Below, in pieces: positions 22,967-52,294 of a DNA stretch of 64,000 nt. Each line of letters begins with the position of its first letter. Positions within the stretch are counted from its first letter, which is position 1. This DNA comes from Comamonadaceae bacterium (GTDB lineage: Bacteria > Pseudomonadota > Gammaproteobacteria > Burkholderiales > Burkholderiaceae_C). Location of the stretch: NCBI GenBank assembly GCA_947375135.1, contig CANCER010000019.1, positions 1-64,000 of the forward strand, written 5' to 3'. The position numbers were made by a program, and so were the translations under genes. A model generated the notes under the pieces. That model saw only the letters and a program-made list of their open reading frames with translations. It made no database searches and had not been told where the DNA came from.

Positions 22967-23042
22967 GCGGGATGGATGGCATGGGCAACTTCCTCATGGT
23001 GGAGTAACACAAATCGTCAGCAGCCCATGCCATCCATCCCGC
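22967..23042 (+). repeat. Conserved-core hairpin, copy A (subtype 1)
   Basis: Perfect 20-bp inverted repeat (22967-22986 with 23023-23042), extended by one T-G pair, around a 36-nt loop. The loop contains the 25-nt core (22992-23016) that starts CCTCATGGTGGAGTA and ends CACAAATCG. The same core recurs at 23266-23290, 52022-52046 and 52247-52271 on unrelated stems. Within the core GTG and CAC can pair around AGTA; copy A has one change (A for C) that weakens this inner stem. The core is on the plus strand, downstream of the rpmG terminator. No T-run follows, so it is not an ordinary terminator. Family not recognised. Confidence 0.85.
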
Positions 23043-23238
23043 GACATTTGGGAGATCCAGCGCATTCAGACACGCGCTTCGGTCGAACAACTTCTTGCGA
23101 AAGAGGGAGTCCGGAACGTGCTTGGCGCTTGGGTCTGTGCGCGTGACGTTGAACGTCAAGCAGGTGGCGTTTGGCGTTATACGTCCAGCACTCGGCGCCA
23201 CGGTATTTGGTATTGCAATGCAACCCGAGCCAATCACT

Positions 23239-23316
23239 GGCGGGGGATGGGGTGTCGGCGCTGGCCGATTTGTGGTACCCCACTATGAGGCCGGCGCCGA
23301 TACCCCATCGCCCGCC
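23239..23316 (-). repeat. Conserved-core hairpin, copy B (subtype 2)
   Basis: Inverted repeat with 28-bp arms (23239-23266 with 23289-23316): 25 Watson-Crick pairs, two differences that are G-T pairs on the plus strand, and one G-G mismatch. The 25-nt core at 23266-23290 reads, on the minus strand, CCTCATAGTGGGGTA then CCACAAATCG, identical to copy D. In the core GTGG and CCAC can pair around GGTA. It lies 45 bp beyond the stop of the minus-strand desaturase gene, with its core in the same sense as that gene, and forms an inverted pair with copy A, 196 bp away. Confidence 0.83.
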
Positions 23317-23361
23317 CGACCGGAGTAACGCAGCGTATGCTCCCCCGAACGACCTAAAACA

Positions 23362-24576
23362 CTAAACCCGCGCAGCCCGCAAGCGCATAGAGAACTCGCA
23401 CAGCGCAGCAATACCGCTGGCTTCCGCCCGGTGACACCAGGCCTGCAACTCAAGCGCCAGTTGGTCACGCGACACATGCGTGTTCAGCCACATCTGACGC
23501 AACTCCTCGCGCATCGTCACCATCTTGTCCAGCACCGGCGAAGCGGCCAGAGCCCTTACCAATACAGGCATCACAGCAGCAGGCACCTTCTCCTGATCGC
23601 GGTGCATCCAACGCTTGGCGGCCTTGCAAACGGCCGCATCGGCGCTGCGGGACTTCATGGCTTCAAACTCATCACGCGCCGCCTGGCGCACACCCTTGGC
23701 GTAACTTGCCATGATCTCGTAGCGGTTGGCAATCAGCGCTTCCAGCGTCTTTTCATCGGCCACCGGACGAATGTCACCGTAGGCAGCCTTGGGCGGTGTC
23801 TTCTTCACCCTGGCCAGGCCAACCATCTGCATCAGGCTGATATACATCCAGCCGATATCGAACTCGTAGGGCTTGACCGACAACTTGGCAGAGGTCGGAT
23901 AGGTGTGGTGGTTGTTATGCAACTCCTCACCGGCAATCAGAATGCCCCAGGGGGAGATATTGGTGCTGGCATCGGGCGCCTCGAAATTGCGGTAACCCCA
24001 GTAGTGCCCGGCGCCATTGATAATGCCGGCCGCCATGATGGGCGTCCAGGCCATTTGCAGGGCCCACACGGCCACACCGGCAGCACCGAACAGAGCCAGA
24101 TCAATGATCATCATGAGCCCCACACCCTGCCAGGAGAAGCGCGTGTACAGATTGCGCTCCAGCCAGTCATTCGGCGTGCCGTGGCCGTAGCGGGCCAGGG
24201 TTTCCAGGTTTCTGGATTCGGCACGGTACAGCTCGGCGCCTTGCAGCAGTACGGTCTTGATGCCATACACATGCGGGCTGTGCGGGTCTTCGGGTTGCTC
24301 GCACTTGGCGTGGTGCTTGCGGTGGATGGAAGCCCACTCCTTGGTCACCTGACCGGTGGTCAGCCACAGCCAGAAGCGAAAGAAGTGCGATGCAAGGGGG
24401 TGCAGATCGAGTGCGCGGTGGGCCTGATGCCGGTGCAAAAACACGGTCACGCTGATCATGGTGATATGCGTCATGCCCAGAGCCGCCAGCACAATCTGCC
24501 ACCAGGTCCAAGCCAGGGCACCATGCGCCAGCCACTCGATTGCTGCGTTCAGCACAGCCCAGTCAGGAAACAACAT
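23362..24576 (-). CDS. Membrane fatty acid (delta-9 type) desaturase
   Basis: Integral di-iron desaturase that introduces a double bond into acyl chains, probably for membrane fluidity. The 404 residues contain the three His boxes HRHQAHR (48-54), HRKHH (85-89) and HNNHHTYP (220-227) between hydrophobic segments, as in acyl-CoA/acyl-lipid desaturases. A basic, helical C-terminal region of about 120 residues extends past the catalytic domain, a common feature of proteobacterial DesA-like proteins. Start at ATG 24576. Single gene; converges on rpmG across the hairpin pair A/B. Confidence 0.92.
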   Translation of the reverse strand: MLFPDWAVLNAAIEWLAHGALAWTWWQIVLAALGMTHITMISVTVFLHRHQAHRALDLHPLASHFFRFWLWLTTGQVTKEWASIHRKHHAKCEQPEDPHSPHVYGIKTVLLQGAELYRAESRNLETLARYGHGTPNDWLERNLYTRFSWQGVGLMMIIDLALFGAAGVAVWALQMAWTPIMAAGIINGAGHYWGYRNFEAPDASTNISPWGILIAGEELHNNHHTYPTSAKLSVKPYEFDIGWMYISLMQMVGLARVKKTPPKAAYGDIRPVADEKTLEALIANRYEIMASYAKGVRQAARDEFEAMKSRSADAAVCKAAKRWMHRDQEKVPAAVMPVLVRALAASPVLDKMVTMREELRQMWLNTHVSRDQLALELQAWCHRAEASGIAALCEFSMRLRAARV

Positions 24577-24688
24577 ACATTCACCAATTTATATAAGAGT
24601 AATGCGCATTCGGCCGGCGCCCCATCCAACGAGGCGCCGCGCCATTTTAGGACGCAGGGCGGGCCTGCCAAGCCGCGTTTTCCCTGCC

Positions 24689-25960
24689 CTACTTCTTTTG
24701 CCAGACGGCCGCAAAGAACCCGTCGGTCTGGTGCAGATGCGGCCACAGGCGCAAGTAAAGTTGCCCGTCCTCGCCGCCGCTGCACAGGCTTGCAGCGTCC
24801 GCCACTTTCAGCCCGGTCAACACCTCTCTCACTGACATGGGGGTGAAGTCCGGGTTGGCAAGGCTGAAGGCTTCGGCAATGGCCTCGTTCTCCTGCGGCA
24901 GCACGCTGCAGGTGGCGTAGACCAGTCGACCGCCGGACTTCAGCAAGCGCGCAGCACTTTGCAAAATCGAAGTCTGCTTGACCGTCATCTCTTCCACGGT
25001 CTGCAGGGTCTGGCGCCATTTCAGATCGGGGTTGCGCCGCAGCGTCCCCAGGCCGCTGCAGGGTGCATCCACCAGCACACGGTCGATCTTGCCGGCCAGG
25101 CGCTTGACGCGCTCGTCCCGTTCGTGGGCGATGGCTGCGGGGTGCACATTCGACAAGCCGCTTCGCGCCTGGCGCGGCTTGAACGAGTCGAGGCGGTGCG
25201 CCGAGGTATCAAAGGCGTACAGACGTCCGGTGCTGCGCATGGCAGCACCCAGGGCCAGGGTCTTGCCACCGGCACCGGCACAAAAGTCCACCACCATTTC
25301 GCTGCGCTTGGCATCCACCAGCATGGCCAGCAGCTGTGAGCCTTCGTCCTGCACCTCGAAGTCGCCCCGTGTAAAGGCTTCCATCTTGTTCAAGGCCGGG
25401 CGTCCGGAAATACGCAGACCCCAAGGGGAATACGGCGTGGGCACGGCCTTGATGCCGGCCTTGGCCAGTTCCTTCTGGATGTCAGCGCGCTTGGCTTTGA
25501 AGTCATTGACGCGCAGATCCAGGCCGGCGCCTTTGTTCAGGCTTTCCACCAGGGGCCAGAAACCGGCACCCAGTTGGTCTTTGAGGGGCTGCACCAGCCA
25601 CTCGGGCAGGTTGTGTCGATGGCGCTCCATGAGGTCGGCTGGGTCGACTTTTTCGCAATCGTCGATCCAGCGGGTTTCCTGGTCGGTCAGCGCACTGCGC
25701 AAAAAGTCACCGGGACCATAAAAGCCCAGAATCGCCATGCGGCGTTCCTTAGGGCCACTCCCCGAGGGGGCGAGGTGGTCAAACAACTGCTTTTTGCGCA
25801 GCACGGTGTATACGGTTTCGGCCATGGTGGCACGCTCGCGTGGCCCCAGACCGCGGTTGTCGCGGAAAAAGCGGGCCACAATAGCGTCCGCCGGATGATC
25901 GAATTTAAGAGACAGCCTGACCAGTTCGGCGCAGGCATCCAACAAGGCTTTTGGGTGCAT
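24689..25960 (-). CDS. RsmB/NOP family rRNA (cytosine-C5)-methyltransferase
   Basis: SAM-dependent m5C methyltransferase of 423 residues from ATG 25960. SAM motif I is VDFCAGAGGKTLALG, motif IV with the first conserved Cys is DAPCSGLGTLRRNPDLKW, and motif VI with the catalytic Cys is YATCSVLPQENE. The N-terminal region is short and is not a clear NusB domain, so it may be an RsmB-like paralogue and not RsmB itself. Two upstream ATG/GTG codons (25978, 26011) overlap the divergent DUF1653 gene and are less likely starts. Confidence 0.85.
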   Translation of the reverse strand: MHPKALLDACAELVRLSLKFDHPADAIVARFFRDNRGLGPRERATMAETVYTVLRKKQLFDHLAPSGSGPKERRMAILGFYGPGDFLRSALTDQETRWIDDCEKVDPADLMERHRHNLPEWLVQPLKDQLGAGFWPLVESLNKGAGLDLRVNDFKAKRADIQKELAKAGIKAVPTPYSPWGLRISGRPALNKMEAFTRGDFEVQDEGSQLLAMLVDAKRSEMVVDFCAGAGGKTLALGAAMRSTGRLYAFDTSAHRLDSFKPRQARSGLSNVHPAAIAHERDERVKRLAGKIDRVLVDAPCSGLGTLRRNPDLKWRQTLQTVEEMTVKQTSILQSAARLLKSGGRLVYATCSVLPQENEAIAEAFSLANPDFTPMSVREVLTGLKVADAASLCSGGEDGQLYLRLWPHLHQTDGFFAAVWQKK

Positions 25961-25976
25961 AACCGAGTATTGTCCC

Positions 25977-26228
25977 ATGACTGAAGAAAACCTCCCGCCA
26001 CTGATCACCACAGCACCCGGTTTGTACCGGCATTACAAGGGCAATTTGTATGAAGTGGTGGACACCGTGCGCCACAGTGAAACCTGTGAACCCATGACCC
26101 TGTACCGCGCGCTTTATGGCGAACGCGGCCTGTGGGTGCGCCCAGCGGCCATGTTTCAGGAAGACATTGCGTTCCAGGGCATACGCCAGCCGCGCTTTGC
26201 CAAAGTGCCTGACGACACCGCCTCCTGA
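25977..26228 (+). CDS. DUF1653 domain protein
   Basis: Protein of 83 residues with the DUF1653 pattern PGLYRHYKGNLYEVVDTVRHSE (segments PGLYRHYKG and YEVVDTVRHSET), TLYRALYG and WVRPAAMF. The family is widespread, short and of unknown function. It starts 17 bp from the divergent methyltransferase start and converges with purN. Confidence 0.88.
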   Translation: MTEENLPPLITTAPGLYRHYKGNLYEVVDTVRHSETCEPMTLYRALYGERGLWVRPAAMFQEDIAFQGIRQPRFAKVPDDTAS

Positions 26229-26238
26229 GTTCCTAAGG

Positions 26239-26832
26239 TCAACTGCCCTGCAGCAGGCGCGCAATGGCACGCGGGTAGATCAGGTGCTCCTGGGTGAGCA
26301 CCCGGGCGGCCAGGGTAGCCTCGGTATCGTCCGGCAACACCGGTACCACGGCCTGCTCCAGGATCGGGCCGTGGTCCAGTTCGGCTGTCACCCAATGCAC
26401 CGTGGCACCGGCGAACTTGCAACCCGCCTCAATGGCGCGCAGGTGCGTATGCAGCCCGGTGAAGGCCGGCAGCAGGGACGGGTGGATGTTGGTCAGGCGC
26501 CCGGCAAAGCGATCCACAAAGGCAGGCGTGAGGATGCGCATGAAACCGGCCAGCACCACCAGCGCGGGATGCTCCTGCGTGTCATAGGCGCTGATGCGCT
26601 CTGCCAACGCCGCATCAAAGGCTTCGCGACTGGGGTAGGTCTTGTGGTCCAGCACTTCGGCGGCAATGCCTTGGGACCGCGCAAACTCCAGGCCCTTGGC
26701 ATCGGCCTTGTTGCTCATGACCGCAGCGATCTTCGTGCCATAGCGCTTGGCCCAGTTCTCGCGCTCGGCAACACGCACCAAAGCCGCCATGTTGGAGCCG
26801 CCACCGGAAATCAGAATGACAATGTTTTTCAT
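26239..26832 (-). CDS. purN: Phosphoribosylglycinamide formyltransferase 1
   Basis: GAR transformylase that transfers formyl from 10-formyl-THF to GAR, third step of purine synthesis. The 197 residues show the phosphate loop ISGGGSNM at 8-15, LAGFMRILTPAFV, the catalytic Asn/His in NIHPSLLPAF and the Asp in ELDHGPILEQ. Stands between DUF1653 (convergent) and the exported ligase upstream. Confidence 0.96.
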   Translation of the reverse strand: MKNIVILISGGGSNMAALVRVAERENWAKRYGTKIAAVMSNKADAKGLEFARSQGIAAEVLDHKTYPSREAFDAALAERISAYDTQEHPALVVLAGFMRILTPAFVDRFAGRLTNIHPSLLPAFTGLHTHLRAIEAGCKFAGATVHWVTAELDHGPILEQAVVPVLPDDTEATLAARVLTQEHLIYPRAIARLLQGS

Positions 26833-26865
26833 GTGGCGCCGATTTTGTCACGCTACGGTCACGGC

Positions 26866-27762
26866 CTACTCCGTATCCCTGACGCGCAGGAAGCTGGCGA
26901 ACCGGGGCAGACCGGTTGCGGTGCGATCCCGGTAGCGGTAGGTGACCACTGCCCCCACCGGCGGTGGGCTGGTGCGCAGCGCATCGCTAAAGCCGCTGCC
27001 CAAGGCAAACTGCCGTCCGTCCGGGGTTTGCAGCAGCAGCGCGCCCATACGGCCCTGGTATTTGCCGGCGCCGGCGGTGTGTGCCAGCACCACACCTTCT
27101 TCATCCGGCACCGGCTTGAGCTTGCGCAGTGCGTCGCTGCGCCCCGGCGCCCAGAGGGCATCGGTGCGGTGCAATACCAGCCCTTCGCCACCAGCGGCCA
27201 CCACCTCGTTCAAACGCACCCGCAGGCTTGCGGCATCGGCAACCCTGGTTTGCGCAACGGGTTCAAGCCAAGGCTGTGCGGCAGACTCCACCAGGTCGCG
27301 GAGGCGGGCAGCCCGCTGCGCAAAAGGAGCCGACTCGCGCGGCAGATCAAACAACATGTAACGCACAGCCTGCCATTCAGCGTCCACCGGCAAGCCCTTG
27401 CGCACAATCGCGGACAGTGGATCAAAGCTATGCCGCCCCATCCACAACTCGCCATCCAGGGCCGCCGCGGGCAAGCCCGCCAAAAACCAGGGCGGCGCGG
27501 CAATCGGCCGGCCGCTGCGAAAGCGCAACATGCCGCCATCCCACAACGCGCGCACGCCATCGAGCTTTTCACTCACCAGATAATCGGCCGGGTTCAGTGA
27601 AGCCTGCCACGCCTTCGCAAGCATCACACCCGGGGCCCTGCCATCGGAGGTGCGCGCGCTGCTTGCGGCCAGCCCCCCGCCAGGCAAAAAAGACCAGACA
27701 CCCAAGGCCGCAACGCTTAGCAGCGAGCGACGTTGGCGATTGACAGGCACTGCAAAGGACAT
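26866..27762 (-). CDS. Exported ATP-dependent DNA ligase (LigE type)
   Basis: Minimal ATP-dependent DNA ligase of 298 residues. It has the adenylation Lys in SEKLDGVRALW (motif I, about residue 65), LDGELWMG (motif III), GGEGLVLHR (motif IV) and LRKLKP (motif V), then an OB domain. An N-terminal stretch with RRSLLSVAALG and a cleavage-like GGGLAASSA indicates export, possibly through Tat. Known LigE proteins act in the periplasm and are thought to join extracellular or incoming DNA. The predicted HNH gene lies immediately upstream. Normal length and all motifs intact. Confidence 0.88.
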   Translation of the reverse strand: MSFAVPVNRQRRSLLSVAALGVWSFLPGGGLAASSARTSDGRAPGVMLAKAWQASLNPADYLVSEKLDGVRALWDGGMLRFRSGRPIAAPPWFLAGLPAAALDGELWMGRHSFDPLSAIVRKGLPVDAEWQAVRYMLFDLPRESAPFAQRAARLRDLVESAAQPWLEPVAQTRVADAASLRVRLNEVVAAGGEGLVLHRTDALWAPGRSDALRKLKPVPDEEGVVLAHTAGAGKYQGRMGALLLQTPDGRQFALGSGFSDALRTSPPPVGAVVTYRYRDRTATGLPRFASFLRVRDTE

Positions 27763-27850
27763 GGGAAATGCACTCCATCACAAAAAGAGTACCTCCCTGA
27801 AGGCGAACAGCCCGAGCCCCGTGCGGTCCCGGCTGCGATCTGCGAAAAGC

Positions 27851-28408
27851 TTATTCCAAAAGCCGGGACGACTTGGGCACATGGGCCATCAAAAACTCCA
27901 TCTGGTCCGCCAGTATGCGGCGGTTGCGCAGAATGAAGTCTTCCCACAGGCTGGGCACATAGGGCGTGTAGAGCAGCGGCATATGGGCCTGCTCGGGCGT
28001 GCGGCTGCTCTTGCGGTGGTTGCAGGGGCGGCAGGCGGTGACGACATTCATCCACGTATCGATGCCGTGTTGCGCAAACGGGATGATGTGCTCGCGCGTC
28101 AGGTCCGTCTCGTGAAAGTGGCTGCCGCAGTAGGCGCAGACATTGCGGTCGCGCACAAACAGCTTGCTGTTGGTCAGGCCCGGGCGCAGGTTGAATGGAT
28201 TGATATTGGGCACACCACGCGTGCCAATGATGCTGTTGACGCGGATGATGGATTGCAGCCCGGTGCGCGCGTTGTAACCGCCATGGAACACCGCGACTTC
28301 GCCACCCGACTCCCAGCGCACCTCGTCCGAGGCATAGTGGATCACCGCCTGCTCCAGCGTGATCCAGGACTGGGGTAGCCCCTGGGCCGACAACTTCAAG
28401 ACTTTCAC
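27851..28408 (-). CDS. HNH endonuclease
   Basis: Protein of 185 residues. The C-terminal HNH fold contains the zinc pairs CAYCG and CRPCNHRK with the catalytic segment TREHIIPFAQHG and WMNVVTACRPCN between. The N-terminal 80 residues (LTLEQAVIHYASDEV region) form the extension seen in housekeeping HNH proteins of Betaproteobacteria, not phage terminase-linked ones. Cellular role unknown; restriction, repair or defence cannot be distinguished. The next gene downstream encodes the exported ligase, 88 bp away. Confidence 0.85.
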   Translation of the reverse strand: MKVLKLSAQGLPQSWITLEQAVIHYASDEVRWESGGEVAVFHGGYNARTGLQSIIRVNSIIGTRGVPNINPFNLRPGLTNSKLFVRDRNVCAYCGSHFHETDLTREHIIPFAQHGIDTWMNVVTACRPCNHRKSSRTPEQAHMPLLYTPYVPSLWEDFILRNRRILADQMEFLMAHVPKSSRLLE

Positions 28409-28584
28409 TCAAGACCTCCATCAACGGTTAAAAACCACCAACACGGACTGCAAACGTCTGACGCGCCAAGCCCCCCAACAGAGTGGGTGCGGCGCTCGGT
28501 GACAATATACAGGGTTTCAATGACAACCTGGCTTCACAGGAAAGGCGCACAGGCGCCGCCCGCTATCAAAAAGATACCCCATTC

Positions 28585-29679
28585 ATGCAAGTTTTTCGCG
28601 GCTTCAAGCACCCCGGCGTCGCAAGCGCCTGCGCCCTCACGATTGGCAACTTTGACGGCGTGCACCGCGGCCACCAGGCCATGCTGGCACTCCTGCGCGG
28701 CGAGGCAGCCCAGCGCGGCGTGCCCAGCTGCGTGCTGACCTTTGAGCCCCATCCACGCGACTTCTTCGCCGCCGCGCAACACCAACCCGAGCTGGCCCCG
28801 GCCCGCGTAGGCACGCTGCGCGACAAGCTCGAAGACCTGTCCCGCTGCGGCGTAGACCAGACCGTGGTCCTGCCCTTTGATGCACGGCTGGCAGGCCTCA
28901 CGCCCGAGGCCTTTATCCAGACGGTGCTGGTCAACGGGCTGGGCACGCGCTATGTGCTGGTGGGGGATGACTTCCGTTTTGGTGCCAAGCGCGCCGGGGA
29001 CTACGCCACCCTCGACGCCGCCGGTGACGCCCTGGGCTTTGACGTGGCGCGCATGAACAGCTACGAAATCTCCTACCGCCATGCAGCGGCTGCCCCGCAG
29101 CCCGACGCAGCCGGGCGCCCTGGCGCCGCCAACCCGCCAGCCGCCGCCATCACCACAGAACCCGCCACCCGGCGCGCCACGGATACTGCGCACGGCCTGC
29201 GTGTGTCCAGTTCCGCCGTGCGCCAGGCTCTGGGCGAGGGCCGCATGCAGGACGCCGCCCGCCTGCTGGGCCGCCCCTACTGCATCTCCGGCCATGTGGT
29301 GCATGGTCGCAAACTGGGCCGCACGCTTGGCTTCAAAACCCTGAACATGCGCTTTGCCCACTGGAAGCCGGCTGCCAGCGGCATCTTTGTGGTGCTGGTG
29401 CATGGCATGTCCGAGCAACCCCTGCGTGGTGTCGCCAACCTGGGCGTGCGCCCCTCGATTGACCCGAATGACGTCAACGGCGGCCGTGTGCTGCTGGAGA
29501 CCCATTGCCTGGACTGGCCCGACACGCTGGGAGCCGAAGGTGCCTACGGTAAAATCATCCGGGTGGAACTTTTGCACAAACTGCACGACGAGCTCAAATA
29601 CGACGGTCTGGACGCCTTGACCCAAGGCATACACAAGGACTGTGACGACGCACGTGCCTGGTTAGAGCGCCGAATTTGA
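28585..29679 (+). CDS. ribF: Bifunctional riboflavin kinase / FAD synthetase
   Basis: Makes FMN and FAD from riboflavin. The N-terminal adenylyltransferase domain has IGNFDGVHRGHQ and TFEPHPRDFF; the C-terminal kinase domain has HGRKLGRTLGFKTLNM and GVANLGVRPSI. 364 residues, longer than the usual 310-330 because of an Ala/Pro-rich insertion at about 170-205 between the two domains, just before the SSSAVR segment. ATG 28585 begins the conserved strand; the ORF upstream is not protein-like. First of ribF, ileS, lspA. Confidence 0.95.
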   Translation: MQVFRGFKHPGVASACALTIGNFDGVHRGHQAMLALLRGEAAQRGVPSCVLTFEPHPRDFFAAAQHQPELAPARVGTLRDKLEDLSRCGVDQTVVLPFDARLAGLTPEAFIQTVLVNGLGTRYVLVGDDFRFGAKRAGDYATLDAAGDALGFDVARMNSYEISYRHAAAAPQPDAAGRPGAANPPAAAITTEPATRRATDTAHGLRVSSSAVRQALGEGRMQDAARLLGRPYCISGHVVHGRKLGRTLGFKTLNMRFAHWKPAASGIFVVLVHGMSEQPLRGVANLGVRPSIDPNDVNGGRVLLETHCLDWPDTLGAEGAYGKIIRVELLHKLHDELKYDGLDALTQGIHKDCDDARAWLERRI

Positions 29680-29789
29680 CGGGGCCACCCTGACGCACCT
29701 GGCCCCGCGTCTCCTGAACCAGCCCGGTGGCAGCCCGTATTGCGCCCTGCCCCACCCCAGCCTTTAGCGCCCCTACCCGAGAATTCGCC

Positions 29790-32678: not shown

Positions 32679-33202
32679 TGGCCCGCGGCGCAAAAAAATC
32701 CGGCGGTACAGGGCTGCAACGCTCCAGTGGACCCGGCATGCTGCACTGGTTGGGCCTGGCCTTCATCGTCATCCTGGTGGACCAGTTCACCAAGGTGCTG
32801 ATCGTCGGCTACTACCGCCTGGGCGACAGCACGTACGTCACCAGCTTCTTCAACGTGGTGCGCGCACACAACCAGGGCGCAGCCTTTTCCTTCCTTGCCG
32901 ATGCCTCCGGTTGGCAGCGCTGGTTCTTCACCGGCCTGGGTGTGGTCGCAGCGGGCGTGATCATCTGGATGCTGAAATCCCATGCCGGCCAGCGTCTGTT
33001 CGGCTTTGCCCTGGCCTGTGTGCTGGGCGGCGCCATCGGCAATGTCATTGACCGCATGGTGCATGGCTATGTGGTGGACTTTCTGGACTTCCACACCCAC
33101 GGTTATCACTTCCCGGCCTTTAACGTGGCCGACAGCGCCATCAGCGTAGGTGCCGCCTGTCTGATCCTGGACGAGTTTTTGCGGGTGCGGCGCGCGCGTT
33201 GA
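32678..33202 (+). CDS. lspA: Lipoprotein signal peptidase (signal peptidase II)
   Basis: Inner-membrane aspartic protease that removes the signal peptide from diacylated prolipoproteins. 174 residues with four transmembrane segments. Catalytic Asp residues lie in [16 protein letters not shown] and FPAFNVADS. An N-terminal basic stretch (ARGAKKSG) of about 20 residues precedes the first helix. Overlaps ileS by one base (TGATG). Confidence 0.96.
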
Positions 33203-33299
33203 TGTGGGTCAGTCCCGGCTTACACCGCATGGGGATAATGTCCGGAAGTCGAATCAACGGCCGGCATTTGCAGCGCTTAACTCTTACTTCGTCACGAGA

Positions 33300-39931: not shown

Positions 39932-39953
39932 GCGACCCGCGCAGCGGCGCAGC

Positions 39954-43475: not shown

Positions 43476-43561
43476 ACTCCAGCGCATGCCGAAATCTGCC
43501 ACCCACCCGCACGCAGCGTGCGCGCGATGCGATACCGCGCAGGGCCCGACCCCGGGTGCCC

Positions 43562-44215: not shown

Positions 44216-44224
44216 AATGGCCGT

Positions 44225-45079: not shown

Positions 45080-45101
45080 CGCCGATAACCACAAGAACAA
45101 G

Positions 45102-45725
45102 ATGGCACAGTACTTTGAAGTCCACCCCGAAAACCCGCAGCCCCGCTTGCTCAAGCAGGCCGTAGCCCTGCTGGAAAAAGGCGGCATCCTGGCCGTACCC
45201 ACCGACTCCAGCTATGCCCTGGTCTGCCACCTGGACGACAAGACGGCGGTGGACCACCTGCGCCGCATCCGCGGCGTAGACGACAAGCACCAGCTCACCC
45301 TGCTGTGCCGTGACCTGAGTGAGCTGGCCAACTACGCACGCGTGGACAACCGCCAGTACCGCCTGCTCAAGGCGGCCACGCCGGGCCCCTTCACCTTTAT
45401 TCTGGAGGCCAGCAAGGAAGTGCCGCGCCGCGTGAGCCACCCCGCGCGCAAAACCATTGGCCTGCGGGTACCCGAGCACAAGGTGCTGCAGGAGTTGCTG
45501 GCCCTGCACGGGTCAGCACTGCTGGCCACCACGCTGATCCCGCCGGGCGACACGCACCCACTCAACGATGCCGAAGACATCCGTGAACGCTTCGAAAAAG
45601 TGATTGCCGGTGTGCTGAACGCCGGCGCCTGCGCGCAGGAGCCCACCACCGTGGTCGACCTGACGGGCGACGCACCCGAGATCGTGCGCCAGGGCCGTGG
45701 CGACGTGGCACTGTTGGGGTTGTAA
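45102..45725 (+). CDS. YciO family protein (Sua5/TsaC-like)
   Basis: Protein of 207 residues with the YrdC/Sua5 fold: GGILAVPTDSSYALVCHLDD at the start (segment VPTDSSYALV), ATPGPFTFILEAS and RRVSHPARKTIGLRVPEH. Sua5/TsaC proteins make threonylcarbamoyl-AMP for tRNA t6A; the YciO subgroup has this fold but a separate or unclear function. Sits 22 bp after the PHP gene. Confidence 0.88.
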   Translation: MAQYFEVHPENPQPRLLKQAVALLEKGGILAVPTDSSYALVCHLDDKTAVDHLRRIRGVDDKHQLTLLCRDLSELANYARVDNRQYRLLKAATPGPFTFILEASKEVPRRVSHPARKTIGLRVPEHKVLQELLALHGSALLATTLIPPGDTHPLNDAEDIRERFEKVIAGVLNAGACAQEPTTVVDLTGDAPEIVRQGRGDVALLGL

Positions 45726-45860
45726 GTGCCGCAGCAGCATCCGCTGCACAAGCCAGGCATTGGCGTTCGCCACCAGGGGACACTGTGTTTGCAAATAACC
45801 ACACCCTGAGCGGCCACAGGCAACAATCTGCGACACTTGAGACGCCCCGAACCACACACA

Positions 45861-47924
45861 ATGCGTCTCCATCTTCAAGCCCTTCTCGATGCGATCCCGG
45901 ACCTGCTGTTTGAAGTGGGCTTGGACGGACGGATTTACGACTTTCACTCGCCCCGCACCGACTTGCTGGCCATGCCGGCCGAACGGTTTATGGGCAAGCT
46001 GATTGCCGAGGTTATGGCCGCAGAGACGGCTGCCGTCTGCATGGACGCAATCGACGAGGCATCCCGCCGAGGCTACTCCGGTGGTGGTATTTACAGCCTC
46101 GAGTTGCCGATCGGCAAACGCTGGTTTGAAGTTTCGGTCTCAGCCATCTCCCTGGAAACCGGCACCGACCGGGACCCGCGTTTTGTGTTTCTCAGCAGGG
46201 ATGTGAGCTTCCGGATCCATGCCGAAGAGGAGATGCGCATTGCAGCCGCGGCCTTTGAATCGGAACAGGGCATGTTCATCACGGATGCCCGCAACACCAT
46301 CCTGAAATCGAACCGGGCCTTCACCCGTATTACCGGCTACAGCACGGAAGACGTGCTGGGCCAGACGCCCAGAATGTTCAGTTCCGGACGGCATGGCCCG
46401 TGCTTTTTCGCAAACCTGTGGACCAGCCTGTTGTGCAACGGCAGTTGGCAGGGCGAGATCTGGAACAAGCGCAAGAATGGCGAAACCTATCCACAGTGGA
46501 TGAGCATCCATTGCGTGCACAACGCACAAGGTGTCACCACCAACTATGTGGCCTCGTTCAGCGACATCAGCGTGCTGAAGACCGCCGAGGAGCAGATTGA
46601 AAGCCTGGCCTTCTCTGACGCGCTGACCCAGCTGCCCAACCGCAGGCATTTGGTGATCAAGATGCAACAGGCCTTGCTGCAATCCGCCTTCAGCCACACC
46701 CATGGCGCACTGGCGGTGTTGGATCTGGACGATTTCAGGTCCCTCAACGAAAACCTGGGCCAGGGCAACGGCGACTACGTACTGCAGCAAGTCGCCAAAC
46801 GGCTATGCGCCTGCCTGAAGGAACCGGACGCGCTAGCGCGCATAGGCGGTGACTCTTTTGCGGTACTGCTGCCCAATGCGGGTATGGATGCACCAACAGC
46901 CAGGCAGCACGTCGAGCACGTCATAGGCCACCTGCTGGCGGCCCTGCGCCTGCCGCATGTGCTGGCTGGGGTCAGCCATTACAGGACGGCCAGTATCGGC
47001 GTCGTGATGTTTGATGGCGCGTCCGAGCAGGATATTGACGAGTTACTCAAGCGCGGCGAACTCGCCACCTACCAGGCCAAAGCGGCGGGAAAGAACCGCT
47101 TCAGCTTCTTTGACCCCAAGATGCAATCGGATCTCCATGCGCGCATCGCGCTGGAGAACGACTTGGGCAACGCCATTGCCAAAAAGGAGTTGCATCTGGT
47201 GTTTCAGCCGCAGGTCACACAAGACCATGCGCTCATGGGTGCCGAGGCACTGCTGCGCTGGATACACCCGGTGCGTGGCCACGTACCCACGGCGGATTTC
47301 ATACCGCTGGCCGAGGAGTCGGGTCTGATTCTCCAGATTGGCGCCTGGGTCATGGACGCGGCTTGCCTGCAACTGGCCGAATGGGCCGGGCACGCCGGTT
47401 TATGCGACCTGACGATCTCCGTCAACGTCAGCGCATTGCAGTTTCAACAGGATGATTTCGTCGCGCAAATTCTGTCCGCGCTGGCCCGCACGGGTGCCCG
47501 TCCCGACCGCCTCAAGATGGAACTGACCGAGTCGCTGATGGTGACGGATGTGGAAAGCACGATTGCGAAGATGCATGTGCTGCGCGGTGCCGGTGTGAGT
47601 TTTTCACTGGATGACTTTGGCACCGGTTTCTCATCCTTGTCCTTGCTCAAGCGGCTGCCGCTGGACCAGTTGAAGATCGACCAGGGCTTTGTGCACAACA
47701 TTCTGACCGACAGCAACGATGCCGCCATCGCCAAAATGGTGATTGCGCTGGGGCAGAGCATGGGGCTGGAAGTCATCGCAGAAGGCGTGGAGTCTGCCGA
47801 CCAACGCGCCGCATTGGCCGACTTGGGCTGCCATGCCTTCCAGGGTTATCTGTTTGGCCGACCGCTGCGGATCGCGTCCTTCGAAACCCTGGCCTTGGGC
47901 ACTCAGGCCGCGAACTTGGCGTAG
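45861..47924 (+). CDS. PAS-PAS-GGDEF-EAL protein, likely c-di-GMP phosphodiesterase
   Basis: Soluble signalling protein of 687 residues: two PAS domains (about 5-115 and 130-245), a GGDEF domain (about 255-415) and an EAL domain (about 430-680). The GGDEF site is degenerate (IGGDSF), so synthase activity is doubtful. The EAL domain is intact, with AEALLRW, ELTESLMV, DDFGTGFSSLSLLKRLP and EGVES, which suggests hydrolysis of c-di-GMP to pGpG. ATG 45861 is preferred over an upstream TTG at 45837. Its 3' end overlaps the convergent GST gene by 22 bp. Confidence 0.87.
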   Translation: MRLHLQALLDAIPDLLFEVGLDGRIYDFHSPRTDLLAMPAERFMGKLIAEVMAAETAAVCMDAIDEASRRGYSGGGIYSLELPIGKRWFEVSVSAISLETGTDRDPRFVFLSRDVSFRIHAEEEMRIAAAAFESEQGMFITDARNTILKSNRAFTRITGYSTEDVLGQTPRMFSSGRHGPCFFANLWTSLLCNGSWQGEIWNKRKNGETYPQWMSIHCVHNAQGVTTNYVASFSDISVLKTAEEQIESLAFSDALTQLPNRRHLVIKMQQALLQSAFSHTHGALAVLDLDDFRSLNENLGQGNGDYVLQQVAKRLCACLKEPDALARIGGDSFAVLLPNAGMDAPTARQHVEHVIGHLLAALRLPHVLAGVSHYRTASIGVVMFDGASEQDIDELLKRGELATYQAKAAGKNRFSFFDPKMQSDLHARIALENDLGNAIAKKELHLVFQPQVTQDHALMGAEALLRWIHPVRGHVPTADFIPLAEESGLILQIGAWVMDAACLQLAEWAGHAGLCDLTISVNVSALQFQQDDFVAQILSALARTGARPDRLKMELTESLMVTDVESTIAKMHVLRGAGVSFSLDDFGTGFSSLSLLKRLPLDQLKIDQGFVHNILTDSNDAAIAKMVIALGQSMGLEVIAEGVESADQRAALADLGCHAFQGYLFGRPLRIASFETLALGTQAANLA

Positions 47925-48523
47925 TACTGGGCAATCGCCGGTGTCTGCGCCATGCGCTCCAGATGGGCGTTGAGCAGGGGTGCCACCTTCTCCACCAGGT
48001 CCGCAGGCACATGGTCCAGGCGTCCGGAGTTAAGGCCCTTCACGTAGGTGAACGCCTTCAAGTCGGCAATGGTGAGGCGATCGTCTGCGAAGTAGATGCC
48101 GCCATGGGCTTGCAGCTGACCTTGCAGCCAGCCCAGGTAGCGGGGCAGCGGACCATGGACCAGTGCGGTGCGGGCATCTTTCAACGCCTCACCGGTCAGG
48201 CCGAAGGTGGTGCCCATTTGGGCAATCGCATCTTCCAGAACGTCCAGCACTTCGTCACACAGCAAGGCCTGGAATGCGTCTTGCGGGTACAGACCGGCGA
48301 GCTTGCCAGCGTAGCGCGTAATCGCGTCACTTTGTGTCACCTGCACACCATCCACATGCAGCGTGGGCACCTGGCCCAGCGGCGTGGTCTTACGCACCTC
48401 GGCGAATTCCGGGAACGCGAAACGGGAGTCCTCAAAGGCGATGCCGCCGATGTGCAGTGCCAGACGTGCCGGCTCGGCGCGGCCACCGTGGAAATCGAAA
48501 TAAGTGAGTTTGAGTTGGGACAT
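47903..48523 (-). CDS. Glutathione S-transferase family protein (sigma-like)
   Basis: Protein of 206 residues. The thioredoxin-like N-terminal domain starts LKLTYFDFHGGRAEPARLAL, with the Tyr residue expected to activate glutathione and TTPLGQVPTLHVDG and QSDAITRYAGKLAGL for GSH binding. The C-terminal half is all-alpha. Resembles prostaglandin-D/sigma class GSTs. ATG 48523; the ORF runs further upstream without coding character. Converges with the EAL gene. Confidence 0.87.
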   Translation of the reverse strand: MSQLKLTYFDFHGGRAEPARLALHIGGIAFEDSRFAFPEFAEVRKTTPLGQVPTLHVDGVQVTQSDAITRYAGKLAGLYPQDAFQALLCDEVLDVLEDAIAQMGTTFGLTGEALKDARTALVHGPLPRYLGWLQGQLQAHGGIYFADDRLTIADLKAFTYVKGLNSGRLDHVPADLVEKVAPLLNAHLERMAQTPAIAQYYAKFAA

Positions 48524-48649
48524 GGTAGGAACCTGAAGAGGAACCGCAACAGACCTGCTGCGGCAAACGTGGCGCATTCTATGCCGCAAACGCAAGACGG
48601 CGCGCACGGCAAAGCGTGTCGCACACACACTCTCTGAGACAATGCCACC

Positions 48650-49318
48650 ATGGACATTGCACAACTGATTCAAACCATCGCCATTTACGCCCTGCCTGTG
48701 TTGTTTGCCATCACAGTGCACGAAGCAGCCCACGGCTATGCTGCGCGGCACTTCGGTGACAACACGGCCTGGAAGATGGGGCGGGTCACGCTCAACCCCA
48801 TCCCCCACATCGACCCCATGGGCACCATCCTGATGCCGCTGCTGCTGTACTTTGCCACCTCCGGTGCCTTCCTGTTTGGCTATGCCAAGCCGGTTCCGGT
48901 GCGCTTTGGCAACCTGCGCTACCCCAAGCGCGACATGGTCTGGGTGGCGCTGGCCGGGCCGGCTGCCAACCTGGCGATGGCCTTGATCTGGGGCGCACTG
49001 TTTTATGTGCTGCACGCAGCGGGCGTCACCGAAATTTTCTTTCTCAAGATGTGTCAGGGCGGTGTCACCGTGAACGTGGTGATGTTTGCCTTCAACCTGT
49101 TCCCCCTGCCCCCCCTGGATGGTGGTCGCATTGTGGTCGGCCTCTTGCCGCTGAAACAGGCGATGGCCTTTTCGCGCATAGAACCTTACGGCTTCTTTAT
49201 CGTGCTGGCCCTGGTGGTGACCGGGTTAGTGAACAGTTTGTGGATGCAACCTGTGCGCGACCTGACCTTGACGCTGATCGGCTTCGTACTGTCCCCATTG
49301 GTGGCGCTGTCGCACTAA
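48650..49318 (+). CDS. Site-2 protease family (M50) membrane protein
   Basis: Membrane metalloprotease-like protein of 222 residues with HEAAHGY near residue 24 (zinc-binding HExxH) and the second zinc motif NLFPLPPLDGGRI near residue 145, with five or six hydrophobic segments. It lacks a PDZ domain, like FtsH-neighbour/YwhC-type members of M50. Cellular substrate unknown. It lies upstream of trpS with a 47-bp gap, an arrangement common in Betaproteobacteria. Confidence 0.9.
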   Translation: MDIAQLIQTIAIYALPVLFAITVHEAAHGYAARHFGDNTAWKMGRVTLNPIPHIDPMGTILMPLLLYFATSGAFLFGYAKPVPVRFGNLRYPKRDMVWVALAGPAANLAMALIWGALFYVLHAAGVTEIFFLKMCQGGVTVNVVMFAFNLFPLPPLDGGRIVVGLLPLKQAMAFSRIEPYGFFIVLALVVTGLVNSLWMQPVRDLTLTLIGFVLSPLVALSH

Positions 49319-49365
49319 GCGCCGCACCCTCACCCCGTTTCACCCCTGTTTTTGCGTTGGATTGC

Positions 49366-50670
49366 ATGAGCCCCACACCCTCCCCCGTTCGCTTTCTTAC
49401 CGGCATCACCACCAGCGGCACGCCGCACTTGGGCAACTATGTGGGCTCCATACGCCCCTCCGTGCGCGCCAGCCAGACCGATGGGGTGCAAAGCTTTTAC
49501 TTTCTGGCCGACTACCACGCCCTGATCAAAATTGACGAACCGGCGCGCATCCAGCGCTCCACGCTGGAGATTGCCGCCAGTTGGCTGGCTGCAGGACTGG
49601 ACCCCGAGCGGGTGGTGTTTTACCGCCAGTCGGATGTGCCCGAGATTCCCGAACTCACCTGGTTCCTGACCTGTGTCACCGGCAAGGGCGTGCTCAACCG
49701 CGCCCACGCCTACAAGGCCTCGGTGGACAAGAACACCGCGGCCGGTGTGGATGCCGACAGCGACGTGACCGCCGGCCTCTTCATGTACCCGGTGCTGATG
49801 GGGGCGGACATTTTGATGTTCAATGCGCACCATGTTCCGGTGGGGCGTGACCAGATCCAGCACATCGAGATGGCGCGCGATATGGCCAACAGCTTCAACT
49901 ACCGCTACGGCCAGCACTTCGTCGCGCCGGAGGCCGTGATTGAAGAGTCGGTGGCCACCCTGCCCGGCCTGGACGGGCGCAAGATGAGCAAGAGCTACGA
50001 CAACACCATCCCGCTGTTTTCCAGCCGGGAGCAGTTGAAAAAACTCATTGCCGGCGTCAAAACCGATTCGCGCGCACCCGGCGAGCCCAAGGACACCGAG
50101 GGCTCCGCCCTGTTCCAGATTTACCAGGCCTTTGCCTCTGCCGAAGAGACCGAGGCCTTGCGCACGGCATACGCCCATGGCATTGCCTGGGGCGATGCCA
50201 AGCAGCTGCTGCTGGAGCGCATTGACCAGGAGATTGCGCCCATGCGCGCGCGTTACCAGCACCTGATGGAAAACCCCGCCGAGGTGGAAGCCTTGCTGCT
50301 GACCGGCGCGCAAAAGGCGCGCGCGATTGCCACGCCCTTCATGGCCCAACTGCGCCATGCGGTGGGCTTGCGCAGCCTGACCTCCGGAGCGGTGCAGGCC
50401 CCAGTAAAAGCAGCCAAGTCGGCGCTGCCCTCCTTCAAGCAGTACCGCGAGAAGGACGGCAAGTTCTACTTCAAGCTGGCCGATGCCAAGGGAGCGTTGC
50501 TGTTGCAAAGCCTGGGCCTGGAGTCACCACAGACTGCGGGCAAGAGCATTGGTCTGCTGCAGAAGGACGGCGCATGCGCATTGGATGCACTGGCGGACCA
50601 GCTCGAACCGTTTGCCGACCGGGATGCAGTACTCGCTGCCCTCGACACGTTAAGGCCGGAGGCCACCTGA
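49366..50670 (+). CDS. trpS: Tryptophanyl-tRNA synthetase with C-terminal extension
   Basis: Class Ic synthetase of 434 residues, against about 330-340 in E. coli. ITTSGTPHLGNYVGSIR is the HIGH-like motif, GRDQIQHIEMARDMA and LDGRKMSKSYDN carry the ATP site. The extra 90-100 residues after LRHAVGL (KAAKSALPSFKQYREKDGKFYF onwards, cited by its first part) form a small domain also seen in other Burkholderiales. ATG 49366; the ORF upstream overlaps the M50 gene and is not coding. Confidence 0.94.
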   Translation: MSPTPSPVRFLTGITTSGTPHLGNYVGSIRPSVRASQTDGVQSFYFLADYHALIKIDEPARIQRSTLEIAASWLAAGLDPERVVFYRQSDVPEIPELTWFLTCVTGKGVLNRAHAYKASVDKNTAAGVDADSDVTAGLFMYPVLMGADILMFNAHHVPVGRDQIQHIEMARDMANSFNYRYGQHFVAPEAVIEESVATLPGLDGRKMSKSYDNTIPLFSSREQLKKLIAGVKTDSRAPGEPKDTEGSALFQIYQAFASAEETEALRTAYAHGIAWGDAKQLLLERIDQEIAPMRARYQHLMENPAEVEALLLTGAQKARAIATPFMAQLRHAVGLRSLTSGAVQAPVKAAKSALPSFKQYREKDGKFYFKLADAKGALLLQSLGLESPQTAGKSIGLLQKDGACALDALADQLEPFADRDAVLAALDTLRPEAT

Positions 50671-50750
50671 TTCCGTTGGCGCGCCCGGGCTGAAACCCAC
50701 GGCTTTGCCTTGTTTTTGCGCTGCAGTACCAAATAAATTTTTGGAAGTCC

Positions 50751-51902
50751 ATGCGTTCCAATCCGTCCACAAAGCCGCACTGGATCGTTTCCACCCACTA
50801 CCGCATGCGGGCTGGCTTCTTCGCCTACGCCTTCCTGTTCTGTGGTCTTTACTTGCGGGGTATAGCCTGCCCGGCCTGGGCTTGGGGTCTGCTGGCGTTG
50901 CAGTTCCTGGTATATCCGCACCTCGTCTACTGGCGTGCGCTGGTGGCCAGGGACTCGCGCAAGGCAGAACTGAACAACCTGCTATGGGACAGCGCCTTTT
51001 TGGGAACCTGGTGCGCTGCCCTGGGATTTCCGCTCTGGATCAGTTTTACGCTGTTCATATCGTCGGCCATCAACAGCGTCATCAGCTCGGGACGCAGCGG
51101 CCTGCTGAGTTCGATTGCCACCTTTCTGGCAGGTTCCGCCGCAGGGCTCGGCGTTTTCGGATTGCGGGCCGCGCACCCGGATCCCCGGGTCGATTGGATG
51201 TGCGTGCTGGGACTGTTCGGCTATCTGACAGGCATAGGCCTGATTGCGTACCGGAGAAACACGACGCTGAGTTCGGTGCGGATGAAGTTAAAAGCCAGTG
51301 AGCAGGCCATGTCGCAGGCCAATGAGGGTCTGCAGCGGCAACTGGCTGAAATTCATGTGCTCAAGGAGCAGCTGCATGACCAGGCCAATCGTGATCCCTT
51401 GACCGGCCTGTTCAACCGCCGCTACCTGCGGGCCACCCTGGAGCGGGAACTTGCACGGTGCAGGCGCAATGGCACCCCGATGACCTTGATGATGCTGGAC
51501 ATTGACCACTTCAAGTCCATCAATGACCGCTACGGCCACGTAGCCGGCGACGAGGTGCTGCGGCAAATGGGTGAGGTTCTGAAGAACGGTGCGCGCCAGG
51601 AAGATATTCCCTGCCGGTTCGGGGGCGAGGAATTTGTGTTGCTGTTGCCGGATATGCCCATGGATGTTGCCTTCGCGCGCGCCGAGATTTTGCGCGCAAC
51701 ATTCGCCGAGGTGTCGGTTCCGTCGCCCCGTGGGGAGGTGCGGACCACGGTCTCCATTGGCGTAGCTACGTTTCCCCGCAACGGCAACACCATGGACGAG
51801 CTAACCCACAGCGCGGATCTCGCCCTGTATGCCGCCAAGCGGCACGGGCGCAACGGCGTGCGTGCTTACCGGACGGATTTCGGCGCTATGGGGCCGACTT
51901 GA
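50751..51902 (+). CDS. MASE2-GGDEF diguanylate cyclase
   Basis: Membrane-bound c-di-GMP synthase of 383 residues. The N-terminal 170 residues contain about five hydrophobic segments and resemble a MASE2 sensor (HYRMRAGFFAYAFLFCGLYL). A helical linker (175-215) leads to a GGDEF domain with intact active site RFGGEEF and an upstream RQED that fits the RxxD inhibitory I-site at 5 residues. DPLTGLFNRR and LDIDHFKSINDRYGHVAGDEVL are typical. Gene layout resembles AdrA/DgcC-type cyclases. Followed by the hairpin pair C/D. Confidence 0.9.
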   Translation: MRSNPSTKPHWIVSTHYRMRAGFFAYAFLFCGLYLRGIACPAWAWGLLALQFLVYPHLVYWRALVARDSRKAELNNLLWDSAFLGTWCAALGFPLWISFTLFISSAINSVISSGRSGLLSSIATFLAGSAAGLGVFGLRAAHPDPRVDWMCVLGLFGYLTGIGLIAYRRNTTLSSVRMKLKASEQAMSQANEGLQRQLAEIHVLKEQLHDQANRDPLTGLFNRRYLRATLERELARCRRNGTPMTLMMLDIDHFKSINDRYGHVAGDEVLRQMGEVLKNGARQEDIPCRFGGEEFVLLLPDMPMDVAFARAEILRATFAEVSVPSPRGEVRTTVSIGVATFPRNGNTMDELTHSADLALYAAKRHGRNGVRAYRTDFGAMGPT

Positions 51903-51940
51903 AGCTTGCGCCGGGCTATGGGTTATGTGCGATGAGTTTG

Positions 51941-51964
51941 CTTTTGTGCTTTTGTGCTTTTGTG
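51941..51964. repeat. Three tandem copies of an 8-bp repeat
   Basis: CTTTTGTG occurs three times without gap. It lies between the diguanylate cyclase stop and hairpin C, followed by two copies of GCTACCT (51970-51983). Confidence 0.8.
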
Positions 51965-51999
51965 CCAAGTGCTACCTGCTACCTGCTGCGTGTGGGCGC

Positions 52000-52069
52000 G
52001 CAGGAGGGGTGAGGGTGGGCTCCTCATGGTGGAGTACCACAAATCGTCACCCACCCTCACCCCTCCTGC
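52000..52069 (+). repeat. Conserved-core hairpin, copy C (subtype 1)
   Basis: Perfect 20-bp inverted repeat (52000-52019 with 52050-52069) around a 30-nt loop with the 25-nt core at 52022-52046, starting CCTCATGGTGGAGTA. It differs from copy A at one core base; GTGG and CCAC pair fully around AGTA. The left arm is purine-rich, like those of the other copies, but its sequence is different. The core is sense to the upstream diguanylate cyclase gene, whose stop is 97 bp before it. Confidence 0.85.
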
Positions 52070-52103
52070 TCCTTGGTGCGTTGCTGCGCTTGCGGGGGAT
52101 ACC

Positions 52104-52131
52104 AGAAGACAGAAGACGGAAGACGGAAGAC
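52104..52131. repeat. Four tandem copies of a 7-bp repeat
   Basis: Copies of RGAAGAC (two with A, two with G) in the 153-bp spacer between hairpins C and D. Low-complexity; no function inferred. Confidence 0.8.
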
Positions 52132-52222
52132 AAAAAGCAGTATCGCGAGGGAAGTTCCACATTCGCGTGGCACGGTTTACGTCACTGAAGGGGGTTGAAA
52201 AGTGGCGTCAACTCACACTCGC

Positions 52223-52294
52223 GGTGGAAGGGGGTATGCCGGGCGGCGATTTGTGGTACCCCACTATGAGGCGCCCGGCATACCCCCTTCCACC
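52223..52294 (-). repeat. Conserved-core hairpin, copy D (subtype 2)
   Basis: Perfect 23-bp inverted repeat (52223-52245 with 52272-52294) around a 26-nt loop. The 25-nt core at 52247-52271, read on the minus strand, is identical to copy B. It lies 67 bp past the nadB stop and is in the same sense as nadB. With copy C it forms an inverted pair 153 bp apart in a convergent gap, the same layout as A/B. Confidence 0.86.

What the first reader, a model, noticed from the sequence alone, without database searches (positions are those of the whole stretch)
22967..52294. Hairpin family with an invariant 25-nt apical core and unrelated stems
Four hairpins (22967-23042, 23239-23316, 52000-52069, 52223-52294) share a 25-nt core with only three variable positions: it starts CCTCATRGTGG and ends CACAAATCG. 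Stems of 20-28 bp are perfect or nearly so but have no shared sequence. Normal repeats (REP, BOX, MITE) conserve the stem; here the loop is conserved and the stem is free to change while staying paired. This implies selection on a loop held by a helix (protein or RNA ligand, or a structure-specific recombinase), or a copying process that makes a fresh inverted arm at each site. The core can itself close as GTGG/CCAC on a tetraloop, leaving a conserved internal loop. I do not recognise the family.
Basis: partly seen in the sequence, partly recalled or inferred. Interest (0 to 1): 0.88.

Follow-up and report, generated by a model that had tools for sequence, protein, structure and literature searches.

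The report
Paired hairpins with a conserved tip
These bacteria carry many copies of a small DNA element made of two outward-facing hairpins whose tips hardly change while their stems drift but stay paired, which points to an undescribed mobile element that something recognises by the shape of the hairpin tip.

Summary
The four hairpins (22966-23043, 23239-23316, 51996-52073, 52220-52297) are two elements, each a pair of 78-nt hairpins facing outward. The own genome has at least 21 copies; 58 of 299 family genomes have matches. Stems of about 24 bp are free in sequence but covary strongly (670 double changes, 0/500 shuffles). Stems are inherited, with compensatory change at orthologous loci. 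Imperfect pairs are G.U 160 against A.C 22 on one strand (5'-CGATTT..YATGAGG), also in both partners of a pair, which fold on opposite DNA strands: one folded strand is under selection. Copies avoid divergent gaps and show no sense preference. One genome has 27 further copies of a ~240-bp unit, 72-94% identical; one unit is missing at the same site in 9 of 12 relatives compared. A second family with another tip has the same architecture; 0 of 84 neighbours mix families. Best reading: a REPIN-like miniature mobile element recognised by its folded tip. The enzyme is unknown, RAYT genes are not linked, and RNA cannot be told from single-stranded DNA here.

The parts
22966..23043 (-). hairpin 1 (left hairpin of element 1); folded strand is minus
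   Evidence: model match 80.2 bits on minus; core at 22992-23016; fold z -8.1
23239..23316 (+). hairpin 2 (right hairpin of element 1); folded strand is plus
   Evidence: model match 80.8 bits; core 23266-23290; fold z -11.0
22966..23316 (.). element 1: outward-facing hairpin pair in the convergent rpmG / desaturase intergenic region
   Evidence: orthologous pairs in L273, L276 and L281, the last with a degraded right hairpin
51996..52073 (-). hairpin 3 (left hairpin of element 2); folded strand is minus
   Evidence: model match 86.4 bits; core 52022-52046; fold z -8.7
52220..52297 (+). hairpin 4 (right hairpin of element 2); folded strand is plus
   Evidence: model match 85.2 bits on plus, 36.1 on minus; core 52247-52271; fold z -8.8
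51996..52297 (.). element 2: outward-facing hairpin pair in the convergent GGDEF / FAD-oxidoreductase intergenic region
   Evidence: same element in G014 (L154); related units in R. lacus and other genomes
22661..22831 (+). rpmG (ribosomal protein L33), left neighbour of element 1
   Evidence: PF00471
23362..24576 (-). fatty acid desaturase, right neighbour of element 1
   Evidence: PF00487
50751..51902 (+). GGDEF diguanylate cyclase, left neighbour of element 2
   Evidence: PF00990, PF05230
52361..53932 (-). FAD-binding oxidoreductase (nadB-like by recall), right neighbour of element 2
   Evidence: PF00890, PF02910

Best explanation
The hairpins are the two ends of a miniature, non-coding mobile element (about 240 bp in G461, 302 and 351 bp in the window) that works like a REPIN/BIME: two hairpins in inverted, outward orientation around a variable spacer, spread by an enzyme encoded elsewhere. 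What is recognised is the folded outgoing strand of each end (5'-stem-CGAUUU-cap-YAUGAGG-stem-3'): a 5x5 internal loop with a tandem G.A/A.G step, set on a helix usually of about 24 bp whose sequence does not matter. Shown: pairing, covariation, strand-specific wobble tolerance, pair architecture, family-matched ends, many copies of one unit in one genome, presence/absence at one orthologous site. Inferred: that a protein reads the tip, that it acts in movement, and that the folded form is single-stranded DNA rather than RNA.
For: Covariation: in 69 non-redundant sequences 96.7% of cells pair, 670 cells change on both sides, covariation score 0.886 against 0.191 in shuffles, 0/500; these rows were selected for at least 20 of 23 pairs out of 78, and the unselected 78 show the same pattern. 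Stem length: paired sequences fall from 69 of 78 at position 24 to 39 of 78 at 27. Strand: G.U 160 v A.C 22 in 114 non-redundant hairpins, register fixed and chosen on Watson-Crick pairs only; left hairpins 63 v 5, right hairpins 82 v 8, so no strand bias of the locus explains it; a wobble-blind alignment gives 176 v 33. Architecture: 41 of 44 neighbouring pairs outward, 0 inward, 3 same-direction; wider set 68 of 72 outward, 1 inward. Matched ends: 72 first-family and 12 second-family neighbours, 0 mixed. Copies: in G461 27 further places with at least 200 aligned bases of one unit, 72-94% identical; 15 of 27 matches start at 990-1003 and 16 of 27 end at 1235-1236 of L259, where the hairpin feet lie at about 1000 and 1233. 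Presence/absence: a unit in G476 and G694 is missing in 9 of 12 relatives compared, which have 8-93 bp between the same flanks. Context: of 135 intergenic copies 6 in divergent gaps, 42 in convergent, tandem 45 sense v 42 antisense.
Against: No trans-acting gene was found: no such hairpin at 46 fetched PF01797 loci, of 68 matched places, with up to 1.5 kb on each side; the neighbour-gene families examined are ordinary. No target-site duplication was identified. In G461, 12 of 27 matches start and 11 of 27 end elsewhere than at the feet; five of the 27 start at about 870 and so share extra left flank. Stem length is not universal: Limnohabitans-type copies have much longer palindromes. Copies kept at orthologous sites also fit a retained function. 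Absence in relatives could be loss. G.U tolerance fits RNA at least as well as DNA. The measure 'pairs with a change on both sides' was reached by 29 of 500 shuffles (25 v 23.5).
Confidence: 0.55

Rival explanations
1. An RNA element: the hairpin acts in 3' untranslated RNA, binding a protein through its tip and stabilising or ending convergent transcripts. A transcript entering the pair from either side would meet its folded form at the far end.
For: G.U tolerated and A.C not, on one strand; convergent gaps enriched (42 of 135 copies; 59 of 388 gaps); kept at orthologous sites; purine-rich internal loops are typical of RNA-protein sites (recalled).
Against: No sense preference in tandem gene pairs: 45 v 42; single first-family hairpins 29 sense v 21 antisense, single second-family 1 v 10. 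No run of T after the 3' foot. Does not explain family-matched ends or 27 further copies of one unit in one genome.
Confidence: 0.22
2. Ordinary REP/REPIN moved by the Y1-type transposase (RAYT) found in most of these genomes.
For: Inverted doublets, mostly intergenic, multicopy; a PF01797 match in 12 of 12 genomes of the genus tried and 26 of 30 of a family sample.
Against: Stems of ~24 bp against 5-13 bp in described REPs (PMC3733652, passages); no conserved tag at the foot; no hairpin at the 46 PF01797 loci examined; a PF01797 match also in 12 of 16 genomes without hairpin matches, against 14 of 14 with them.
Confidence: 0.1
3. Fold-back copying: the second arm is repeatedly re-copied from the first (template switching or self-priming at the hairpin), so stems stay paired without selection.
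For: Near-perfect arms of free sequence; quasi-palindrome correction is a known process (recalled); much longer palindromes in Limnohabitans-type copies.
Against: Copying gives no reason for a 7:1 excess of G.U over A.C on one strand, nor for stems of different sequence ending at about the same position.
Confidence: 0.1
4. Chance or assembly artefact.
For: Many sources are metagenome bins; one hairpin (L281, right) shows homopolymer runs that suggest bad assembly.
Against: 0.03 expected; present in an isolate genome (Rhodoferax lacus) and in a single-contig genome (G476); covariation.
Confidence: 0.01

Closest known systems
REPIN / BIME (inverted doublets of REP sequences; PMC3116915, abstract and passages seen)
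   Same: two ends in inverted orientation around a spacer, intergenic, multicopy, compensatory changes, the doublet proposed as the moving unit
   Different: here each end is itself a 78-nt hairpin with a long free stem; the conserved part is the apical internal loop; no conserved foot tag; no link to a RAYT gene
GTAG and CGTC palindromic repeats (PMC3733652, start of abstract and passages seen)
   Same: palindromic dispersed repeats, dimers common, families differing in loop
   Different: 20-40 bp units with 5-13 bp stems and a terminal tetranucleotide tag; the words Rhodoferax, Comamonadaceae and Burkholderiales do not occur in its main text
MITE (general definition as given in PMC3116915, passage seen)
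   Same: non-coding, about 100-400 bp, repeated, ends inverted
   Different: the two ends share the 25-nt tip, not their stems; no target-site duplication seen
Rickettsia palindromic elements (recalled; only a search listing seen)
   Same: palindromic repeats that also lie in frame inside protein genes, as the variant copies here in a UvrA gene
   Different: not known to me for a conserved tip on free stems
Beta-proteobacterial repeat element BRE (PMC3110155, passages and section 14 seen)
   Same: ~90 bp, GC-rich, usually intergenic, in Rhodoferax, Polaromonas and other Burkholderiales; by size and range it could be the second family noted here
   Different: sometimes in tandem arrays; its sequence is in a figure and additional files that I did not see, so identity is open

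Membership tests
REP / REPIN | inverted doublet of repeated ends | tested here: met
   41 of 44 and 68 of 72 neighbours outward
REP / REPIN | short palindrome (5-13 bp stem) with GTAG or CGTC tag at one end | tested here: not met
   stem ~24 bp; flank information at most about 0.4 bits at any position beyond the stem in 67 sequences, Limnohabitans-type copies left out
REP / REPIN | linked RAYT gene with the repeats beside it | tested here: not met
   0 of 46 PF01797 loci fetched, of 68 matched places
REP / REPIN | RAYT-type gene somewhere in the genome | tested here: met
   12 of 12; 14 of 14 hairpin-positive, but also 12 of 16 negative
MITE | terminal inverted repeats and target-site duplication | tested here: inconclusive
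   the tip is shared between ends, stems are not; 15-16 of 27 matches end at the hairpin feet; empty sites too diverged to show a duplication
intrinsic terminator | hairpin followed by a run of T | tested here: not met
   T is 3-12 of 67 at each of positions 26-45 after the folded strand
Rfam families | score above curated cut-off | tested here: not met
   0 matches in the window and in six related loci; below cut-off, 26 matches in 501 bases, mostly microRNA models fitting a long hairpin
k-turn RNA motif (definition recalled) | tandem G.A next to a 3-nt bulge on one strand only | tested here: not met
   tandem G.A and U.U present, but the loop is symmetric 5x5
BRE (PMC3110155) | BRE consensus sequence | not testable with these tools
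   sequence not in the text I could see
integron attC site | R/L boxes and adjacent integron integrase | not tested
   considered from memory only

The most novel reading that the evidence does not exclude
A new class of miniature element whose two outgoing strands each fold into a hairpin read by an undescribed enzyme through a non-canonical internal-loop 'address tag'. At least two tags exist (CGATTT/YATGAGG and AGGTMAAGGAGGAG/GGGGGACAC) on the same chassis; sister species carry one or the other in the same intergenic region, and no pair seen mixes them. The geometry (folded strand leaves the element with its 3' end outside at both ends) is also that of self-priming terminal hairpins.
Probability: 0.2. 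Interest if true: 0.88.

Novelty: new variant of a known kind. Interest (0 to 1): 0.72.

Why it matters
It separates structure from sequence in a natural repeat: over a hundred distinct stems differ while the fold and tip are kept, so the recognised unit is plainly visible. It makes testable what reads the tip, and whether as RNA or single-stranded DNA. Two tip families on one chassis allow clean swap experiments. It also warns annotators: copies can create spurious reading frames and some lie inside genuine genes.

Tried and rejected
Rfam at gathering cut-off and relaxed: no family above its cut-off. RAYT as the driver: no linkage. Neighbour genes in search of an autonomous partner: 774 neighbour proteins were clustered and the 28 largest clusters listed; Pfam named eleven families among the 19 proteins tried (aldehyde dehydrogenase, DUF1501, DUF779, TctC, gyrase-B type, topoisomerase-IV-A type, enoyl-CoA hydratase, acyl-CoA dehydrogenase, short-chain dehydrogenase, CoA-transferase, LysE), two proteins had no family, none is a transposase; the other clusters were not examined. 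Hairpin pairs at 1.8-2.1 kb intervals that first looked like cassettes lie within a UvrA-type reading frame. My first arm-pairing display used a register one base off; later counts use the right one. Taking the quoted strand as the functional one was overturned by the mismatch count. Viral contigs: 0 exact matches to one pattern. Literature: searches listed no paper that I could recognise as describing this tip; most subscription papers are not held, so this is no proof that it is undescribed.

Limits: the gene caller is my own (hexamer model; rebuilt), trained on the same loci; the intergenic control includes the hairpin loci. (65 of 100 genomes) includes chance three-mismatch hits, as its backwards control also hits some genomes. 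One search scores at most 15 candidates a genome, so copy numbers there are lower bounds, and its strict filters may lose weak matches. One search compares all hairpins of a locus with 50-97% stem identity, so a few left-right comparisons may be included. In one search, hairpins with fewer than 14 Watson-Crick pairs were dropped and stems at least 80% alike collapsed. One search examined 12 of the 20 loci fetched. Loci fetched were in part chosen because they hold the core, so frequencies are not genome-wide.
Full report
What is there. The core is present four times in the window, against 0.03 expected. The four copies form two pairs, 22966-23316 and 51996-52297, each between convergent genes: rpmG / fatty-acid desaturase, and GGDEF / FAD oxidoreductase. 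In the own genome (4.2 Mb, 89 contigs) the pattern gave 14 hits with up to 3 mismatches; 13 are also model matches, one on contig C67 is not, and the model adds eight (C63 five, C35 two, C8 one), 21 in all. One genome of the same genus, G078, corresponds to Rhodoferax lacus IMCC26218 (same 152,720-base contig) and has 32 pattern hits. With the model, 58 of 299 genomes searched in the family (37 of 141 genera) and 4 of 300 in the order have a match; the single match outside the family scores on both strands and is probably a generic palindrome. An exact pattern found nothing in viral contigs.

Anatomy of one hairpin. Read on the strand 5'-CGATTT...YATGAGG-3', the outer stem pairs symmetrically. 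In 78 non-redundant copies out of 166, 69 to 77 form a Watson-Crick or G.U pair at each stem position 2-24, falling to 39 at position 27. Inside follow C-G, G.A, A.G, U.U, U-A, U.Y, then a 4-bp cap and a TACY loop. C28-G51 and U32-A47 never vary in the 69 aligned sequences; the cap varies as GTGG/CCAC, GCGG/CCGC or CTGG/CCAG, changing on both sides at once. On these 69, 96.7% of cells pair, 670 cells differ on both sides, and the covariation score is 0.886 against 0.191 after shuffling and 0.13-0.16 with partners slid. The rows were chosen for at least 20 of 23 pairs out of the 78, so the percentage is inflated; the unselected 78 show the same pattern. The number of pairs with any double change (25) is hardly above shuffles (23.5; 29 of 500 reach it), because the columns are so variable. 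Limnohabitans-type copies are an exception in stem length: their palindromes run much further out.

Which strand folds. On the complement these are G.U and A.C. With register fixed and selection on Watson-Crick pairs only, 114 non-redundant hairpins give G.U 160, A.C 22, other 95; left members of pairs 63 v 5, right members 82 v 8, singles 67 v 9. Left and right members fold on opposite DNA strands a few hundred bases apart, so a strand-biased mutation process at the locus cannot produce this. In all four window hairpins the motif strand is also the more stable RNA fold. One folded strand is therefore under selection. G.T is also the best-tolerated mismatch in DNA (recalled), so this does not separate RNA from single-stranded DNA.

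Architecture. Neighbouring hairpins within 500 bp are outward-facing in 41 of 44 cases, never inward; the other three belong to three-hairpin groups. In the wider set 68 of 72 first-family neighbours are outward and one inward. Core-to-core spacing of the 41 is 106-274. In R. lacus and relatives the unit is recognisable as a whole, with a partly conserved spacer. In G461 it is about 240 bp: besides the query, 27 places match over at least 200 bases at 72-94% identity, and two more are cut by contig ends; 15 of the 27 matches start at 990-1003 and 16 end at 1235-1236 of L259, where the hairpin feet lie at about 1000 and 1233; five start at about 870, sharing extra flank. Across those copies the stems differ while pairing is largely kept.

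Descent of stems. At rpmG/desaturase, 23 of 30 loci fetched showed both genes; four carry the first-family pair (own, G006, R. lacus, G069), two carry one hairpin, 17 none. Between hairpins of one locus, stem pairs changed on both sides and still paired 90 times, changed on one side through G.U 32 times, and were broken in one partner 53 times; at the aldehyde dehydrogenase/DUF779 locus 537, 138 and 121; at the gyrase-B/topoisomerase-A type (parE/parC by recall) locus 223, 45 and 81. So arms are inherited and drift with compensation; they are not made afresh.

Gain or loss. For one unit of G476, relatives of the same genus were compared (12 of 20 loci fetched): G694 has it; nine have 8-93 bp between the same flanks where G476 has about 320; one lacked a flank and one had about 1.4 kb of other sequence. 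This is presence/absence variation; direction and target duplication are not resolved.

Context. Of 179 hairpins, 6 overlapped called genes; 135 of the rest had a gene on both sides: convergent 42, tandem sense 45, tandem antisense 42, divergent 6; gaps of at least 80 bp in the same loci were 59 convergent, 243 tandem, 86 divergent. Singles alone in tandem gaps: first family 29 sense, 21 antisense; second family 1 and 10. This does not fit an element that must be in the sense of its neighbour's mRNA. Variant copies lie inside a 2329-residue UvrA-type reading frame in G557, with similarly spaced copies in G448, G633 and the own genome.

A second family. At rpmG/desaturase, 12 of the 17 loci without first-family hairpins hold another motif, AGGTMAAGGAGGAG...GGGGGACAC, seven of them as an outward pair; a thirteenth (L293) shows with a shorter pattern; none of the 23 loci holds both families. 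It too sits on free stems (51 of 55 with at least 18 of 26 pairs), outward-facing in 12 of 12 neighbouring pairs, with G.U 64 v A.C 10 on the motif strand in 36 non-redundant copies. Its pattern occurs in 68 of 100 genomes of the genus. No neighbouring pair mixes the families (0 of 84). Whether it is BRE of PMC3110155 is open.

Mechanism. Matched ends, outward strand-specific folds, many copies of a whole unit and presence/absence favour a two-ended mobile element read at its folded tips. The closest described kind is the REPIN, but the short tagged palindrome and the RAYT linkage were tested and not met. It works like a REPIN; it is not shown to be one. The enzyme is unknown. The RNA reading remains the main rival.

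Noticed in passing
L279, L283, L284, L290, L291, L294, L298 and others (rpmG/desaturase region); 18 pattern hits in G000: Second hairpin family with a different conserved tip (AGGTMAAGGAGGAG...GGGGGACAC), same chassis and strand-specific wobble; not found in the window with a short pattern.
   Followed up: partly
L394:342-7331 (-); L395, L396; L399:427-4546: Variant hairpin pairs lie inside a UvrA-type reading frame, about 1.9-2.1 kb apart, so they are translated through.
   Followed up: partly
L085, L119, L139, L147 (Limnohabitans-type bins): A subfamily with very long palindromes framed by ATTGGGGTCAG...CTGACCCCAAT; several copies appear to sit within the tip region of another hairpin.
   Followed up: no
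L258, L259, L265 interiors (G461): The spacer between hairpins contains GTAG-type palindromes (GGTAGCGCGCTACC), as if a REP doublet lay inside the unit.
   Followed up: no
L255-L262 downstream flanks and L377:807-836: Another dispersed repeat, like AATAAAAACCCGCGGGAGCAGCTAT, lies next to several units and near the RAYT-type gene of G461.
   Followed up: no
window 23362-24576: The C-terminal part of the desaturase scores above cut-off for a transposase family, PF01610 (E 3.4e-7, residues 282-400); meaning unclear.
   Followed up: no
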